Of a stretch of 64,000 nucleotides of DNA, positions 43,804 through 59,542 are shown in pieces. This stretch comes from Rhizophlyctis rosea (taxonomy: Eukaryota; Chytridiomycota; Chytridiomycetes; Rhizophlyctidales; Rhizophlyctidaceae). Under the pieces are notes generated by a model. The model was not told the DNA's origin. It did not search any database and was given only the letters and a program-made list of their open reading frames with translations. The position numbers and the translations under genes were made by a program. The stretch lies in contig JADGJC010000220.1 of assembly GCA_027596075.1 (NCBI GenBank), positions 1-64,000 of the forward strand, in the 5' to 3' direction. Within the stretch, counting starts at the first letter, position 1. Every line of letters begins with the position of its first letter.

Positions 43804-46800
43804 CTATGTAGGGGACTTCGTCCGGTCCACCGGAGCCTCGGTGTCACCTTTCAGAGTATCACCCCGATCTATTTCTTTTAGGAACTCGGAACTTCCCTTG
43901 TTGACTGAGGAGTTGAGCATGTTGGTGTTTAACCCGACTTTCCGTTCAATGGATGTGTGGATATCTTCTGCAGCCCACACGTCAAATGCGATGAGAAGTT
44001 TTGGAATGGCAAACACAAGTGTCGATGCCACTGAAGCTACAAAGGTCCCCAGGGCAATGAGTAAAAACAGTGCTTCCGGCGCTTCGACGATCAGCGTTAC
44101 GGGAACGATTACAAGCGACATCAGGATGATAAGCACCGTTGCGGCTATTGTAAACGTATTCTCATTGTAACCTGTATGATGCTGCGTGAGTATCTCGACG
44201 CACTTGGCCACAGTGTCATACACATACTTGAGACAACTCTTCGGGTCCGCCAAGACAGAATGCCCGTCAAGAGGATGATGAGTGCATTGTACGCGTAATA
44301 CAAATATGTTGCAACATTGGACGCTGCGGGGCAATCGACCTGCTCCAAAATGATGCTATGTGCGGGAAAGGGAGTCCTTCGAATTCCTTTGTCGTCTCCA
44401 GCACGGAATTGATATAGCTGGGCGACAGCAAGTGATCAACAATTGAAATGGAGATGGTCCTCCAGGAAGAATGATAAAACGCGGTCTCACCACGTTGTTA
44501 CTTACCAAGGAAATGAATATATTCGGTATTACCAACAAGACGATCAGCGAGATGAGTTTTGCATCGCTGAATGCTTTAGGAATGCCGGGATGGCGGAAGA
44601 TGGTGTCGATGCGGTACGTCTTCATTCCTAGTGATCCCAATGTGGTTGAAAAGCCAACCGAAAACGCCCAATCTATTCGAAAGATGAGAATAATCGTCAA
44701 CGTTGAGCTGCAAATGTGACAACGCACATGTTCCAAAGCATTCCTTCCACGTTATATTATTCACATCGCCAACCCGCAGCACCACTGAAAGTAACGTCAG
44801 GACGGCTCCTGTTGTATGATCAGTCAGTATAATAGCCTTTGATCTTGCGGTTCGTACAAATGTGAATGAAGACGAACCGAACATGATCAGCAGACTGGGA
44901 ATCAGCGAAGCTGCCCGTATGACAGGTGCATCGCGCTTCCAAATAAACAGTGCCATCAAAATGAACTGAAGAACACCACCAATACAACACAAGACCACCA
45001 TAGTTCTTCCCGTCACGGATTTTTTGCTGATTCCCCTCGAGGGGAGATAATCAATGATGGGAGAAGGTAAACTGTCAGCATCGGCAAGTTTGATATCAGT
45101 CCGGCAAACAGTTTCCTGAGTAAAAATAATTTGGTCAACATTGAAATAGAAGCGGGCGCATCGATGGCAACAGTACAAACTTACGATGTCGTTCCGCCAG
45201 CTGAACGAAACAGAAGCCTGATTGGTAAAGGGATTATTCACCGTCGTGACGTTCCATTGCGCCGAAGTGCATGGCGGGCGTGTTGCATAGTTCACAATCT
45301 TGCATACACGATCAATGGCTTGAGTGGCATTGATTTGGTCTTTCTGCACACAAGACAAGCCCACGATTGAATCAAAGATGCTATCGATTGGTTACAAGAA
45401 CTGGAACCAACTCCACAAAATGACATTACCTTCCATATAAGCTCACTCGTCACCGTCGCCTAGATGTGCTGAAAGTCAGGAGGTACCATTTCAGATATTG
45501 CAAAGCCGAGGTGGTAAATACGTACGATAGGATCATACTGGCCCGTGTAGAAGTGGCTAGCATGTTGCGGGGATGGGTACCCAGGGAACACTCCGTGTGC
45601 TGTAAGGCGTAGGTATCCATCAGACCGCCGTATATGATGGGCTTACTCTGGGAACCCACCAAGACTTACAAAAGTATTTCTGCCAGAAAGACTTAGCTCC
45701 CGCCTGATATTCGGAAGTAAACTCGGTAGACGTCCATGCCGATATGCCCCCTTGATTTGAGTAGGAGACGGGCGCATTGACTTGTAGGTCCTCGTTCTGC
45801 ACAATGGCTCCCATCAAAGCGTCCCATGCAATATTGGGATCGCGACTGATGTAAGGTATGCCTATCAAAGCCGCGGAAAGCTTGGCTGGTGTGGGTGAGT
45901 AGATGAATATGCAATCGGTCGCAGAACAATAAGATAGGTCAAATGCTGAAATCAGTCCAACTGTTAGCGACTTCTTCAGCATGCATGTTCCGCCCGGCTC
46001 ACCTGTGGGGTTCCAAGAATTATTTCCCCATCCCGGATGATTCAGAGTGGGGCCCGGCTGATCCCAGGGCGTTTTCCAATTGATGGGCTGTTGTTGCCAT
46101 TCGTGAAAAGCTGTTGCATTGGCAGGGGTGCGGCGATTGAGTAATCCTGGGCGAGAAAGATAATACAATCTAGCATGGTCTCAGCCCATGAACCATTGAT
46201 GGCATATCGAAGTAATCAATCGTCACGCACAAAGTTTTATTCCATGCGTCGATACTATTGTCATCGAACCCGCACCGGCCGGAGGCATCATATAGGGTAT
46301 CTGAGCCTTAATCAGATTGCTGAAAAGCAATTTGACATAGTAAGCGGCGCAGGTGCTTACCTCCATAATGCATCCCAGAAAACGCTTGCAACTCCGTTTC
46401 CGCCTGGAACCCAGCCGGCATTGTGAAGAGCCCTCGCAGCGCTGTACCTATATCTTCAATCCACAGGAAGGACCCACCAATTGCAAGGAACATGGCACCT
46501 ACAGAAATCCGTATACAATATTTCTAAATACTCAGTAAACTTGGCCATATTCCACCCTTTCCACCACGCAGTCCCCCACTCGGTGGCGGGAGGGGGAAGC
46601 TTCAATCCAGCGTTGGTCAGTGTATTGGATTTCAACCGCCTGTCTCATGAATCAGATGCCATTCTTATGCTCGCAATATCGCAGCCACGTACCATGCGAC
46701 GCCCTTGATCCAGGCGGGTAAAGCGTATTGGACTCCCGAATATGTCACTAAAGTAAGAGCACTGCCTAGCATCTACGGAATGCGGATTAATGACAGTGTT

Positions 46801-49950: not shown

Positions 49951-52900
49951 TCACCGCTTCCGGCCGCTGGAAACATCCTGACTTCCCACCACTGCACTCT
50001 TCACAATTCCAGGTTGCCCTTCCTCCAGATTGAAGTCCTTTCGACTCAACGTCATACTTCCCATCCCCTTGATTGCCTTTTCCAGTGGTGTCTCAGGCGG
50101 CGCCGCAGTTCGTACATTCGCACGCTCAGGTCTTGCCAACCCGCGGTCCGCCAGCAATTGATCTACCCGAACCTACAAGTTGTACATAATATGGTCAATC
50201 AACACAACTTCGGTGGGAAGTTTTACATCCATCTCCTACCTTCACTAAGTTGTAGCGATTGCGCAGCGTTGGCCAATGAATTGCATCCTAGTGTTTGGTG
50301 GCGGTCAATCAAATGAGCCTTATTACGTTGGCATTGGTGCGCAAACCTTCGCATGATTTGTAAAGAGTAACACATTGAAGCCGAAGGCAGCATACAGGGC
50401 AGCATCTGTAGCAGTAATATTCAGAATTGGCTTGGAAGAAAAAGAATGCAACAGGCATCCAATACACATACCCAAATTCTGCTGAGTGCCCACAAGAACG
50501 TTCACAACCATCATTGGGACGGCCTTCACTAGCCCAGGGATGGCCACACACAGGGTGATGATCATCTCCTGTCGCGCCGTATTGAGCTCCAAAATTGCTT
50601 TCTGTAGTTCTTTATCGGAGGCGGCATGTGCGATTCTATCCACCGCCTCCTGCGACGACACATTAGATCCCGCCGCAATCAATGTAATCCCTTTAGTGCG
50701 GAAGGAGTTCAGCGTGTACGCGTTATACAGTCGAATGAGGATAGAGAGAAAAGTCACGCTGTAATTGTGATGCAAGTATTATATGACTCATCAGGTTTAC
50801 CGCTGTTGATGATCACTCACCAGCTCCCAAATATGCAACCAGCAACGTAAGCGAGTCGGAAACGAGAGCCACCATGCACGTGAACAAACGCGAGCCTGAA
50901 AACAACCTTTAGCATTGGGAAACGTAGCAATATTCGCTATCAACTTACCAGTCCAAACCACAATCGGCTCCTTCCAAGGCAATGAAAATGAAGGATGCAA
51001 TGATGCCGTTGATCAAGTGCGTCATGACCAAGTCTGTTTTGAGTCTGAGAGCCGGTGAGTGTTTCGTTTTGGACCACGATATGAACGAAATCTTACTCTT
51101 TGTGCTTGTGAATTCCCATTTGCCGACGTTTAATCAGAGCCATTCTACGTCTGAAAATTGATTGGTTTAAAGCCGAAGCCATGGCGGTTGGAGAGGGGAA
51201 GACCTGACTGACCTGTAAGTGTAAAAGCCCGCCGCACCAACAACCACCGCTAGGGTGATCGATATCGCCGCTACTTGCCCAGCTTCCGACTTAGACTTAT
51301 CCAGCGCTGCCTTACACGGTTAACTCACGTGTCCAGATTCTCGGAGTTCAGGCTTTCATATTGTACTCACGCATGCAGACAAACCCATTCCACCACGAAT
51401 CCCCAGGACAGTCACAACGCTTCGGACTGGTCCATATCCTTCCTGAATCACATGGCAAGCAAGACTGCATCCCTGGTCCATCCGTATATGTGCCGTTCTT
51501 GCACTCAACGCACATCTCGGAAGCGAAGCCGATGCCACTCGTCCCCGCTGGACACGCCGTACACTTGACATCGCCAGGTAATGATGTCATTCCGACGTTG
51601 CAAGGCACACAAGCGCTTTCGGCAACCGATAAACTGTAACCGGGCGGACAGTTGCTATTCGTGGTGTAAGCGATGCTTAATCCTGTTCCTGTGATGGCGC
51701 GGCGCGAGGTAAGGTGGACTTGCAGATTGGGGTAGTTGGCGACCTGAATCATTAAAGGCATTGTGGTGTAATTTGCAGGTACCCAGGTAAGGTTTGTATC
51801 CGATTTGACGAGGATTGGGCCAGCCGTAGACGTCAGCGTTAGCAGATCGGTTGTTGGGTCCAAAACTAAATCGGAGTTGGCAAAGGACAAATATATGGCG
51901 CGAGCGGGCGTTGATGGCGCGATATTGAACGTGATGTTCGTAGCGTATCGGGTGCCTAGAACAACGCTATTACTATGCCTGTATCTTATTACTTGAGATC
52001 CGATGTTACCTCCTCCGCATGTATCATTCAAGATTCCTGACGCATTGCTGTTGGATAAGAGGTAATTGCAGTTCCCGATGAAAAATCCCTGATCCCCACT
52101 CGTGGTCGATGCATCTGCCAGTATAATCCGCCCGCCCACTGGAGCCGGCAGCGGGGAGAATTTCTGTAGGCAAGTGATGAGTATCTGAACACAAAGTGCT
52201 CATTATCTCAAACACGTTCCCACCTCCAGGTATTGCTTGAACATCACATCCAGTTGTGGTCCTTTATCAAAGGCGTTCAGCGCATTGGTGGCCAGCATAG
52301 TGTAGTCGTCGCCGCCGGCGCGCATGTAATCGTTTGTGCAGAGCTGGTAGACCTTGTCTGCCTGAATCGGCTCATAGAGACCGGTAGCACGATTTTTCCA
52401 TTCCACGGAAAACACGCGATGCGGTATGGTGACGTTTTTGTTGTACCGAATGCGAAGGGCGGCAATCTGTGGAAAGCGACCAGTTCCTTTCGAGTTGTCT
52501 GTGTGTATGGGTTAGTTTTCCGCCACATATCTTACATATGGAAACATATTTCAACGGTACCTGTCAGCGGATTCGATCTTGAAAGACCATTGATGAACAT
52601 GTCAATGATGTCTGCGCCTCTGTAGATAAGATGAGCATGATGGTGATACAGCGGCCGCCGGCACGCCCTTTCAAGGAAACTCAAGAGGCCTACCTCATTC
52701 CCGCAATAGCAACATAGTTTTTGAACGGCATGAATAAATCCACCGCACCAACAGTGATATTGCCCGGTCCCATCGGATTCGTAGCAGATCCACCATTCAA
52801 GAAAACCGCATCGCAGGTATCACCCATACCCCACATGATTGCATCAGCAACGGCCATCATGCCCGTGCATTCTCCTGTTCTGCAAGTGCTGGTCAACTGC

Positions 52901-54407
52901 ACGTTGGAACTGCCCACGACGTCCGATGCTGCCGCCTGTACGGGAATTAGGGCAGCTGTGATATCGGCTTGCATTGCGGAATCAGCTGGCACACATGCAG
53001 GGTCAGGTGTTGGTGAACTGGTGTTGCATGCTAGGAGGGGGTCGATGGTGCCCGTCCATGTGATGGGCGTGTCGTTTAGGAATGTAAGATCGAGACGACC
53101 AAGACCGTAGAAGTTGGTTGTTGTTGGGACGTTGCTGACTATTAGCACTTGAGTGCCTGTGATCTCATATCAGAATATATATCTCTGGATTGAGAATTCA
53201 CCAAATCTCCACACTCGGTCTTACCGTCATCCCTCTGAACCACCATGGGCAGCGGTCCCATCCGTGCGCTCACTCTGACATTGTTACTCAGCACCGCCGT
53301 CCCATCTGTGCTGAAAATTACATCTATCCCCGGCACCTTCATTGCAACTTGCATGTCATCTGTTAACATTGACGTGCTGGATGTCATCAAAATCACGACA
53401 TCAGGATGCTCAGTGAACATCAAGTCGTCCATGAAATTTTGCAGGTAGCTTAAACCTGGTAGCACTCGGATGGCTGCAGGACCGTTTACGACGTCCCCGC
53501 AACGGGTCCGAGTACAGAACGCATCTGCCATGTAGGAGATTAAGGCCACTCGCGTTACGTCACCGGTTGTGGCATTTGTGAATGGTATGAGGTCGTAAGG
53601 GAGGACGTATTGAGCTAAGGGGTTGCTACGGTCAATCAGGACATTGGTCGCGATGCAGCGTAGTGTGGAGTTTGAAAGGAAGTCTGGTTTGTGCAAGTTC
53701 TCCACATGAGCATGCTAAGTTGCATCATGACGAAATCACACTTGACCAACTCACTGGTTGCGAAGCTGGTGGGCCCGAGATTGAGATCCTGTGGGAAGAG
53801 TATGAAGAGTTGAGATCAATGACGGGGATATATGATCTTGGGATCCGAACCCACATGAGTCCCTATCCTAACCAGGAACGGTATTAGTGCAGCCCCTCAT
53901 TGGTTGGAACTCAACCATTCACTTACGAGACGTATTGGAATCCGACTCTCTCGAGATAGGTATGTTCCACGGAGCCTGATTGGTCGTTTAAGCAAAAGTC
54001 TGCGTCGGCGAACCTGACAGACATCCGTCCAGACTACCAACCCCTATAGTGATTGGAAAACGCCGTGAATCCAATCGCATCCGTTGCATGAACAGTGATG
54101 TTTGGAATGCCATTGGCTTGCAAATCCGTCTATCCTTCCGTGGTGAGACAATTGTTCAATCAACCTGGACTCTTTTCCAGGGACTCACACGAATGGAATC
54201 TATCTTCGTCTTCATTCGGGCATATCCCCCAATCACTTGTTTGTCAGGACCTGGCACTCCATTCTGGTTGCCGTCGGTTTCTGCCGTGTACAAGAAGGAG
54301 AGCTGGAACCATTTGTCATCTGCAGTGACGGGCTGGGTGCATATAGCAAGGAAGATGACCGCGAAAACCGAGAGGAGCCAGCGATGCCATGACGCAGGGA
54401 AGTACAT
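49951..54407 (-). CDS. Pseudo-5'-nucleotidase ectodomain, Cys-rich stalk and multi-pass membrane region
   Basis: Seventeen exons: 54407-54189, 54129-54042, 53999-53927, 53788-53755, 53714-53225, 53156-52694, 52619-52561, 52498-52224, 52163-51371, 51306-51213, 51150-51097, 51044-50949, 50895-50821, 50758-50472, 50405-50347, 50287-50240, 50172-49951; all phases close, 1142 aa. Signal peptide (WLLSVFAVIFLAICTQPVTA). Residues 30-540 follow secreted 5'-nucleotidases: GGYARMKTKID, SNPLAQYVLPYDLIPF, VPGIDVIF, MVVQRDDG, FLNGG, ITVGAVDLFMPFKNYVAIAG, GRFPQIAALRIRY, DKVYQLCTNDYMRAGGDDY. Metal sites are lost (see findings). A beta-rich segment and GCC2/GCC3-like cysteines follow (CPPGYSLS, CVPCNVGMTS, CTACPAGTSG, CLPCDSGRI). 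About five helices come next (ISITLAVVVGAAGFYTY; LINGIIASFIFIAL; AYVAGCIFGSCVTFLSILI; IITLCVAIPGLVKAVPMMVV; ALYAAFGFNVLLF), then a tail. The 42-bp third intron is the weakest call. Confidence 0.8.
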
Positions 54408-56655: not shown

Positions 56656-59542
56656 TTACCGATCCCGATTATAAGCCCTCACCAACCTCTCAACATCATA
56701 CACCGCCCCAACGACACTCTCACTCATTTCCCAAACCCTGATCAACAACGCATACCGCAAAGCAACCACACTACCCTTCAAACCATCCTCAACACTCTTT
56801 TCCCGCCCTCCAATCTCAACCGCCATCCCACCACTTCCACCACTCCCAAACGCCCTCACATCCCCCAAGCCCTTCACTCCACCCACACCATTACCACTCC
56901 CTATCCCCATCCCACTCAAAACCCCACCAACAACCGTCGATCCCCTCCGACTACTAATCGGACTCATTATCCCCGTTCCCAACCCATCAAACCTGGCATT
57001 AATCAACCCCCTCACCCTAACCAACTCCCCTTCCAACCCCTCCCTAGCCCTCCCAACCTCCCTCGCAACAACCTCCAACCGCGCACAAAGCTCCGCCGCA
57101 CCAACCGGAACTGCACGCGCCCGACTCGTTGTGGCAAGCGTTACGTCTCCCAGATCCATTAATGTGACGCATATCGAACTGATGTATTTCGCTAAATCGA
57201 AAATTTCGTCGTCGGTGATGGTTGTGGCGGTTGATGGTGAGAATGGTGATTGGTAGGGCTGTTGGTATGGATGAGATGTGGGGTGAGTGACGGCAGTGGT
57301 GGATGGGAAGGAATGGCTGAGTGAGGTGGTGTCGTCGACCCAGGCGGTGTGCCAAAAGGGGTTGGAGGTTGTTTCCATGGTTTGGCGGGACTCGGCGCGT
57401 ACGCCGCGCAGTTCGACTAAACGTTCGGAGTAGAGAGATACAACTTGGTAGAATAGAAGTCTGAATGAATGATAGTGGGTGAGCATGAAATAAGTTATCA
57501 CAGGTGCGGTGCATACTCTCACAAGCAAGAAACTGCAAACGAGGCACGCAATTTGGGCACATACCTCAATCGCCTGATAACCTTATCCAATGGCGCGGTC
57601 GGCACAAAATGAGGACTCTGATTCATCCTCAATTCAACCTTATACGAAGCCTCCAACCGCGCCCTCTCCTTCTCTAACGTCCTCAAAATCTTCACAGCAG
57701 CCGGATGAATCTTCGCCCTGAACCTCGTAGCAGTGATAACCCCATCATCCTCCTCTTCATCCGACTCCTGAGCCGACCCCGGCAAATTCCTAAACCAAAC
57801 CTTCTTATTCTTCTTCGCCTTTTTGAAGATATTCGGATGCCATCGTTTCTTTTTGCGGGGTCGGCGGACTGTTTCGGCGGTTACCGCTTCTTGTGAGTCA
57901 AGGACGTCCATTCCACCTCCAACTGCCACTGTCACGTCCGTGTTGTCAAATTGATTCTCGAGCGAATGAGGTTCGAAGCTACTCCGTGCAGTTTGAGGGG
58001 TTGCCGTGTCACTATCGTCATCTGACGAATCCGACGGATCAACATCCTCAATCTGGATTGCAACCGACTCTGGTTTTCGTTTGACGGGGGTGAGATATCC
58101 TTCATGCAGGACGTCGTATATAAATCCAGCAAAATCCTTGAATAGATCTCCCGTTATCCGACGATGCACCACGTTCACCCGGACTGGCCAAAACAGGAAT
58201 GCCCCAATCATGGTCAACATGATGCCCAATGCAACACTACCCAGACGTGTCAATGCCGGAGTATAGTTGTCCCAAGGTATGCCGTTTCGTTGGTCGTCGT
58301 ATGCGGATAGGAATGTAATGAGGAATGTTAGGTCGACCATTTTGGAGGTGTATGCTTGTGCGGGAACGGTTTCACGGACGGTGACGATGACGTAGAAGAA
58401 GATGAATGTGATGAGGGCTGAGACGTACGGTTTCCAGGAGCAGTGGAGGCAGCCTTGTGGTGGCAGGATGCTGTCGAGGTAGAGGACGAAGATGGAGAAT
58501 GCACCGGAGAGGAGGATGCCTAGGAACCGTTGTGCAAAGAGGCGGACGGATGCAGTTTGTTTTGCTATGATAGAACGGTCAGAGATATGGAATAATGATA
58601 CCTTGCCAAATCATATAAAAAACTCACGTTCAGCCACCACTATGGCGGACATAGCCACATACACGGGATTACTCGCCCAAATCTCACCGATAGGTTTGAT
58701 GAGAATGAAGGATGCAGCCATGAGAATCACCAGCGCGACCTGAGCACCAGCTGTGTTGAATTTCAGCCGGTGCTTGATTCGCAAATCCGACCATGATGGT
58801 ATCTGTCCTTTTGGAAGGGTCGGCATGCTAGGAGATGCCGCAGCGGCAAGGGAGGGACGGTGAAATGGGTTATGAGGATTGTAGTCGGATGGCGGAGGCG
58901 GTGCTTCGGTATCCAACGATAATCGAACGCGGGCGGTTCCTAAATTGAAGACACGATCTCATGAGTAATTGCCTATTCTTCTGAAAACCCTTCGCCATTG
59001 AAAGCGCATCTCATCATCTCCTTCCGTCCGTGCTCCAAATTGTCCATCAATTTTTTGACCATCACCATCGACTTATTATTCCGGCCTCCACCCGTCCCAT
59101 TGTCGCCTTTCACTGATACTCCAACCATCATTATTCACCTTTCTTCTGATTCTCACATCCACCCTGATATCCCAGGCCGATTGAATCGCAAAATGACCAA
59201 CCATAAGCGAAACCCACCTGCAGACGCAACACTACTCATTGGCGCGTTTTCCCAATCGTCGGCTAGTTGCTTTACCTTCTTCTTTGTGGATTTTGAAGTG
59301 GTGGCGCGTGGAGATGAGGAAGGTAGTAGGTTGGCGGAGGATGAAAAGGGAGACGTCTTTCCATACGAACTGTGATCGTTGTCATTATCATGGTCGCTGT
59401 CATCGTCCTCTCCGATGAACTTTATCTTCCTCGACGCACCCGCACTCGTACTCGCACTGCCACTCGCATTAAGCGTATCGGGCGCTATGCTAGCCGCGTC
59501 TGACGGGGAAGGCAAGACAGGGTTCTCTGGTTTCATGGCCAT
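56656..59542 (-). CDS. FUSC / Bre4-like membrane transporter
   Basis: Four exons: 59542-59218, 58939-58628, 58564-57565, 57460-56656; phases close to 813 aa. The N-terminal 150 residues are disordered with an acidic run (DDDSDHDNDNDHSS) and KSTKKKVKQLADDWENAP. Helices follow: QVALVILMAASFILIKPIG; ASNPVYVAMSAIVVA; FLGILLSGAFSIFVLYL; YVSALITFIFFYVIVTV; VDLTFLITFLSAY; LGIMLTMIGAFLFWPVRVN. This six-helix block ending FWP matches the FUSC (fusaric-acid-resistance/ALMT/Bre4) superfamily. The long C-terminal cytosolic half has SRRGS and a helical bundle. Family members export aromatic or organic acids or affect brefeldin sensitivity; the substrate is unknown. Alternative ATGs are 59542 and 59536. 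Confidence 0.85.

What the first reader, a model, noticed from the sequence alone, without database searches (positions are those of the whole stretch)
49951..54407. A catalytically dead 5'-nucleotidase fold turned into a multi-pass receptor
The ectodomain follows secreted 5'-nucleotidases from end to end, but each metallophosphatase motif is replaced. HTNDxH becomes YTAETDG. LDAGD becomes TDAIG. The GNHE block is absent (a Pro/Ser-rich stretch and HAHVEN stand there). The His of ALxHLG is lost in ILMTSSTSM. GGHxH becomes STDGTA. The C-terminal nucleoside-binding part (PFKNYV, AGGDDY) is better kept, although the Arg of NGGGIR is gone. After the fold come GCC2/GCC3-like cysteines, about five membrane helices and a cytosolic tail. 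All 17 exons stay in phase, so the gene looks intact. A nucleotidase pseudoenzyme joined to a membrane-spanning module suggests a sensor of extracellular nucleotides, an architecture I do not know as described.
Basis: partly seen in the sequence, partly recalled or inferred. Interest (0 to 1): 0.85.

Follow-up and report, generated by a model that had tools for sequence, protein, structure and literature searches.

The report
Dead nucleotidase on a five-helix membrane module
A chytrid fungus carries an intact gene for a cell-surface protein whose outer part is a nucleotide-cutting enzyme that has lost its catalytic residues and is joined to five membrane helices; relatives in two chytrid orders keep the same design, so it is probably a receptor-like protein with an unknown ligand.

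Summary
The corrected gene has 18 exons, 1128 residues, introns of 52-74 bases. The GNHE block is not absent: it reads GTHDLN, keeping the His. The LDAGD register was also off; that Asp survives in Rhizophlyctis rosea. Still, five of six metal ligands are replaced, and across nine family members only 4 of 68 metal/catalytic cells are kept. A model of the Spizellomyces orthologue matches CD73-type 5'-nucleotidases end to end. The same order (dead nucleotidase, beta-rich region, Ephrin_rec_like cysteines, five helices, tail) is seen in six further orthologues whose models reach the tail. So it is a conserved pseudoenzyme, not a decaying gene. Receptor function is the best reading but unproven; nucleotide binding is only suggested. 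Closest print precedent: class C GPCRs of choanoflagellates and relatives with 5_nucleotid_C and Ephrin_rec_like ectodomains (PMC12716839). The ectodomain idea is thus partly known; in my searches I met no record of the loss of catalysis, the five-helix module (no Pfam or PDB-sequence relative) or the chytrid family.

The parts
49951..54407 (-). whole gene, 18 exons, 1128 aa
   Evidence: exon chain, all GT-AG, in phase; scores against orthologues; NCBI protein HDV00_004510 (P0001) is identical to residues 249-1128 and lacks the first 248
54321..54407 (-). hydrophobic N-terminus, likely signal peptide (residues 1-29)
   Evidence: hydropathy; coordinates
53119..54311 (-). N-terminal metallophosphatase-like domain (residues about 33-300), catalytic residues replaced
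   Evidence: fold of the orthologue
53855..53867 (-). 13-nt microexon giving IGTH of SIGTHDLN (the GNHEFD equivalent)
   Evidence: the same residues are read through in P0002 (IGTHDF) and, as FGTRDF, in P0008 and P0009
52143..52941 (-). 5'-nucleotidase C-terminal domain (residues about 360-560), with CRTGEC, LNGGSAT, MPFKNY, NDYMRAGGDDY
   Evidence: (Pfam 5.9e-23, residues 367-531)
51657..52100 (-). beta-rich region (residues about 575-722), no credible Pfam match
   Evidence: strands in the P0009 model; coordinates
51387..51650 (-). Ephrin_rec_like / GCC2-GCC3 cysteine-rich region (residues 725-812)
   Evidence: PF07699 26.1 bits, cut-off 23.1
51218..51274 (-). membrane helix 1 (residues 829-847), followed by the basic stretch RRRMALIKRR (inside)
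50975..51031 (-). membrane helix 2 (residues 872-890)
50725..50861 (-). membrane helix 3 (residues about 911-935, spans an intron)
50563..50724 (-). conserved loop between helices 3 and 4, cytosolic by the predicted topology (residues 936-989)
   Evidence: alignment A3; largely helical in the P0009 model
50506..50562 (-). membrane helix 4 (residues 990-1008)
50356..50484 (-). membrane helix 5 (residues about 1016-1036, spans an intron)
49954..50355 (-). cytosolic tail (residues 1037-1128), poorly conserved
   Evidence: 19-28% identity to six orthologues over residues 1046-1128

Best explanation
A conserved receptor-like pseudoenzyme. Shown by computation: one gene with an intact frame encodes a two-domain 5'-nucleotidase fold that has lost its metal-binding and catalytic residues (most simply before the split of Rhizophlyctidales and Spizellomycetales, since the same sites are lost in both), followed by a beta-rich region, a cysteine-rich stalk, five membrane helices and a short tail. 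Inferred: the two-lobed ectodomain binds a ligand in the cleft between its domains (perhaps a nucleoside or nucleotide, using the kept Arg354, Asn390, aromatic-500 and Asp506 equivalents), closes about its hinge as CD73 and UshA do (recalled; the PDB titles name open and closed forms), and the closure passes through the cysteine-rich stalk to the five-helix module, whose conserved inner loops contact the signalling partner.
Against: No ligand, no expression and no signalling partner is shown. The seven pocket sites as first defined are not kept better than the C-domain background (0.603 against 0.645; leaving out N245 and counting Tyr at F500 as kept gives 45 of 54, too few sites to judge). 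The stacking Phe417 is Asn in 7 of 9. The tail is short, poorly conserved and matches no signalling domain. The family was found in only two chytrid orders. In R. rosea some acidic residues at the old metal site remain (E, D, D, and D at H243), so residual metal binding is not excluded.
Confidence: 0.5

Rival explanations
1. Membrane-anchored regulatory or scaffold subunit: the dead ectodomain pairs with the active secreted 5'-nucleotidase of the same cell (CD73 forms dimers, recalled) and holds or regulates it at the surface, without sensing.
For: R. rosea has a canonical copy at C263 (L012) with HTNDIH, DAGD, GNHE, SHNGY, GGHSH, GGIR and AAGGD seen exon by exon, ending with a stop and no helices in that frame. 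Many C-domain invariants are kept (0.645 on average).
Against: No evidence of pairing. The canonical copy does not group with the family in the tree, though it is a long branch of unsure place. A five-helix module is more than an anchor needs.
Confidence: 0.15
2. Surface adhesin or cell-surface structural protein: the nucleotidase fold is only a stable spacer or binds a protein or glycan ligand; cysteine-rich stalk and helices hold it at the surface.
For: 14 N-glycosylation sequons, 13 before helix 1; cysteine-rich stalk; pocket not kept above background.
Against: Strong conservation of the predicted inner loops between helices suggests more than anchoring.
Confidence: 0.2
3. A still active hydrolase with a changed metal site (R. 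rosea keeps E/D at the first motif, D at the second, H of GTHD and D for H243).
For: Residues listed for NTX18; Asp at H243 in 9 of 9; His at the first Asp of DAGD in 9 of 9; Asp for the Glu of GNHE in 9 of 9.
Against: The first-motif residues are G, L, A or S and N, S or A in the six other members that have that region, and D85 and H118 are lost in 7 of 9, so no common metal site is kept.
Confidence: 0.08
4. A decaying pseudogene or a fusion made by the gene model.
For: NCBI's own model lacks the first 248 residues; no transcript data here; the orthologue models are database predictions too.
Against: 18 in-phase exons; same order in single protein models of six other orthologues from other genomes; 33-47% identity by domain, tail apart.
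Confidence: 0.03

Closest known systems
CD73 / UshA / NadN 5'-nucleotidases
   Same: Whole two-domain fold, C-domain motifs CR..EC, NGG, GGD-Y
   Different: Metal ligands and catalytic dyad replaced; joined to cysteine-rich stalk and five helices; known members are secreted, periplasmic or GPI-anchored (recalled)
Glutamate-family (class C) GPCRs of choanoflagellates and other close relatives of animals with 5_nucleotid_C and Ephrin_rec_like ectodomains (PMC12716839; section 9 and passages read)
   Same: The same two named ectodomain families ahead of a multi-pass membrane module
   Different: There the module is a class C 7TM; here five helices with no 7tm_3 match. The parts I read do not say whether those nucleotidase domains are dead
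Class C GPCR blueprint in general (two-lobed ligand domain, cysteine-rich domain, membrane bundle)
   Same: Two-lobed ectodomain, cysteine-rich stalk (NCD3G matched at E up to 1 in 8 of 9 rows of A1, best 9.7e-5; below its cut-off of 38.9 bits wherever bits were shown: 18.1 window, 14.3 P0009, 16.8 P0010), membrane bundle, tail
   Different: Ectodomain is a nucleotidase fold, not a periplasmic-binding fold; five helices, not seven
P2X receptors, reported in basal fungi including Spizellomyces punctatus (PMC3853471, passages read)
   Same: Extracellular nucleotide sensing in the same group of fungi is plausible
   Different: Unrelated fold and topology (recalled)

Membership tests
5'-nucleotidase superfamily (CD73/UshA fold) | Two-domain fold with 5_nucleotid_C | tested here: met
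5'-nucleotidase superfamily (active enzyme) | Six metal ligands D36, H38, D85, N117, H220, H243 (CD73 numbers, recalled) | tested here: not met
   Window: E, D, D, T, S, D; nine members keep 2 of 50 ligand cells, both at D85
5'-nucleotidase superfamily (active enzyme) | Catalytic dyad H118 and D121 | tested here: not met
   H118 kept in 2 of 9, D121 in 0 of 9
5'-nucleotidase superfamily | Nucleoside pocket R354, N390, R395, F417, F500, D506 | tested here: inconclusive
   9, 9, 7, 2, 9 (as Phe or Tyr) and 9 of 9; by exact residue and with N245 the mean is 0.603, not above the C-domain background of 0.645
Class C GPCR | Seven-helix 7tm_3 bundle | tested here: not met
   At prediction level: five hydrophobic segments; long helices at 801-832, 839-877, 886-920, 947-991, 995-1038 in the P0009 model, plus short ones at 934-944 and 1044-1054; no 7tm_3 in 5 of 5 module sequences at E up to 10. 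A very remote common origin is not excluded
Class C GPCR | Cysteine-rich domain NCD3G | tested here: inconclusive
   18.1 bits against a cut-off of 38.9 in the window protein
Class C GPCR | G-protein coupling | not testable with these tools
   needs experiment
Receptor (any) | Ligand binding and signal output | not testable with these tools
   needs experiment

The most novel reading that the evidence does not exclude
A new class of fungal surface receptors: a nucleotidase fold stripped of catalysis works as a ligand-closing clamshell for extracellular nucleosides or nucleotides and drives a five-helix transducer unrelated to GPCRs or P2X channels, conserved in chytrids of two orders.
Probability: 0.22. 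Interest if true: 0.8.

Novelty: new variant of a known kind. Interest (0 to 1): 0.55.

Why it matters
[quoted passage not shown] A conserved catalytically dead 5'-nucleotidase on a membrane module is a concrete, testable candidate in fungi with motile zoospores. It also gives the nucleotidase ectodomains reported on choanoflagellate GPCRs a counterpart in fungi with a different membrane module, so a pseudo-nucleotidase ectodomain may be an old opisthokont receptor part. Finally it shows how a missed 13-base exon can fake the loss of a motif.

Tried and rejected
Metallophos (PF00149): no match at E up to 1 in the corrected protein, and none of the 16 listed own-genome matches lies on the window's contig. 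Paralogues elsewhere in the genome: apart from the gene itself, only the canonical copy at C263, and nothing for the membrane module at E up to 0.1; the tool calls its counts lower bounds. Relatives of the membrane module: Pfam gave only seven families each matching one of five members (E 0.039-2.4); PDB sequences gave two matches, E 0.11 and 2.5, over a single helix; viral and prokaryotic contigs gave none confirmed by tblastn. XK-related (PF09815) and P2X (PF00864) in the own genome: no match, but no control rang either, so these say nothing about absence. CUB: I suspected a CUB-like domain at residues 575-722 by eye; Pfam at E up to 10 gave no CUB match in 5 of 5 members (one member hit an adenovirus fibre head, E 0.0092) and PDB sequences gave one match at E 1.6; not claimed. 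Foldseek against viral models gave giant-virus proteins, some named transmembrane (best A0A481Z815, E 1.4e-3, prob 1.00, 20% identity, TMt 0.36, rmsd 11.0), perhaps over the helix module; only a lead (the top two hits there are Pandoravirus 5'-nucleotidases). The PDB structure lists are filled by nucleotidases and their kin, so the helix module and the beta-rich region were barely tested there. The three protein searches need shared exact words, scored capped candidate lists in two of three and listed 120 of 406, so absence outside two orders is not shown. dN/dS was not done: no DNA of relatives was at hand. The ten paper searches cover only open-licence papers, and I saw their listings alone, often the top 10-20 of many; none listed was about this family. 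PMC6572847 (passages read) concerns another nucleotidase.
Full report
Gene. Three of its introns stood out in length (40, 42 and 138 bases; the others 52-74). Orthologues then showed that the stretch around GNHE was misread. The corrected chain has 18 exons and 1128 residues; all introns are GT-AG and 52-74 bases long; exon 4 is a 13-base microexon at 53867-53855. It changes 'SISISGPPASQPHAHVENLHKPDF' into 'SIGTHDLNLGPTSFATNF', which aligns without gaps to 'SIGTHDFTAGPASFGNNF' of the second R. rosea protein, P0002. On an HMM of six orthologues (P0003, P0006-P0010; window protein not in it) the corrected chain scores 1062.7 bits and the old one 1021.4. No transcript was available.

Organism and family. 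The protein database identifies the contig with Rhizophlyctis rosea: NCBI protein HDV00_004510 (P0001, 880 aa) equals residues 249-1128 of the corrected protein. Three protein searches gave eight relatives with this architecture: R. rosea isolate HK097 (P0002, 53% identical, model truncated at both ends), Thoreauomyces humboldtii (P0003), three Geranomyces (P0005-P0007; P0005 lacks its N-terminal start), Powellomyces hirtus (P0008), Spizellomyces punctatus SPPG_01727 (P0009) and Fimicolochytrium jonesii (P0010, model ends after helix 2). NCBI taxonomy places R. rosea in Rhizophlyctidales and the other genera in Spizellomycetales. In the R. rosea genome no second copy was found by tblastn of either half; the only other 5_nucleotid_C match is a canonical copy on contig C263, read exon by exon, with intact motifs and no helices before its stop. 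In a 26-row tree the nine members form one side of a branch with support 100/100 and length 0.96.

Loss of catalysis. I aligned nine members with seven enzymes with intact motifs, chosen by me from the hits (CD73 residue numbers are recalled). D36, H38, N117, D121, H220 and H243 are kept in no member (0 of 7 for the first two, whose region two models lack; 0 of 9 for the rest); D85 and H118 in 2 of 9 each, both Rhizophlyctis. That is 4 of 68 cells (mean 0.056 per site), against 0.446 at 67 other N-domain positions invariant in the seven enzymes and 0.645 at 51 C-domain ones. In a wider alignment of 47 non-family rows, which includes the dead bacterial protein P0030, these sites are: D36 47, H38 39, D85 44, N117 47, H118 46, D121 43, H243 44 of 47 and H220 46 of 47 (the H220 column printed is one off). 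Some replacements are themselves fixed in the family: H243 to Asp, the Glu of GNHE to Asp and the first Asp of DAGD to His, each in 9 of 9. So the loss looks old and the site constrained for something else.

The pocket. R354, N390 and D506 equivalents are kept in 9 of 9, the F500 position is Tyr or Phe in 9 of 9, R395 in 7 of 9 (lost in both Rhizophlyctis), F417 in 2 of 9 (only Rhizophlyctis). The seven pocket sites as first defined (with N245, exact residues) average 0.603, no better than the C-domain background; without N245 and with Tyr counted at F500 it is 45 of 54. This allows nucleoside binding but does not show it.

The membrane module. It is 43-47% identical between the window protein and six orthologues, with invariant residues in the first inner loop, in the D-W-x-A-F turn, in the long inner loop and in helix 4 among the five sequences aligned. 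It has no credible Pfam family, no PDB sequence relative beyond single-helix matches at E 0.11 and 2.5 and no tblastn relative in viral or prokaryotic contigs. A Foldseek lead to giant-virus membrane proteins is weak.

What is known. In my paper searches I saw none on this family (listed under Tried and rejected). The nearest print record is an eLife 2025 study (PMC12716839; section 9 and passages read): Glutamate-family GPCRs of choanoflagellates and other close relatives of animals carry 5_nucleotid_C and Ephrin_rec_like domains. In the chytrid family Pfam too sees 5_nucleotid_C and, in the window protein and P0010 above cut-off, Ephrin_rec_like, but no Metallophos; in the scan of A1 Metallophos rang in one of nine rows, and P0004, the canonical row, is the one listed with it. 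That makes me suspect, without test, that the choanoflagellate domains are dead too. The chytrid module is not a 7TM by prediction. In PMC4240048 (passages read) Trichoderma responds to extracellular ATP with no known receptor; PMC8305905 (passages read) argues for such receptors in Shiraia; PMC3853471 (passages read) cites P2X homologues in S. punctatus. These make a nucleotide sensor plausible in fungi, no more.

Verdict. Real, frame intact, conserved, with the catalytic residues lost, and receptor-like; ligand and signalling unproven; architecture partly foreshadowed by choanoflagellate receptors; membrane module without relatives that I could find.

Noticed in passing
44579-45391 (minus): The neighbouring gene downstream on the same strand looks like a class C GPCR (7tm_3 E 2.1e-4, 21.5 bits, below the curated cut-off of 33.5); its extent was not determined. 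Two receptor-like genes may lie side by side.
   Followed up: partly
P0030 (Anaerolineae MAG protein): A bacterial 5'-nucleotidase homologue with other replaced metal and catalytic residues (H38 to R, D85 to G, H118 to P, H220 to Y, H243 to N), outside the chytrid clade: dead 5'-nucleotidases exist elsewhere too.
   Followed up: partly
P0002 against the window gene: Two isolates named Rhizophlyctis rosea have copies only 53% identical although one copy was found in the window genome: the isolates may be different species.
   Followed up: no
49951-54407: NCBI's model of this gene starts 248 residues too late and so drops most of the N-terminal domain.
   Followed up: yes
model m620e4acfafa6 of P0009, perhaps the helix module: Foldseek matches giant-virus proteins of 198-246 residues (Pithovirus LCPAC304 E 1.4e-3, Marseillevirus LCMAC202 E 9.8e-3), a possible remote relative of the module; the matched range was not printed.
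   Followed up: partly
57522-58610 (minus): Weak match to aluminium-activated malate transporters (E 9.8e-4, below cut-off).
   Followed up: no
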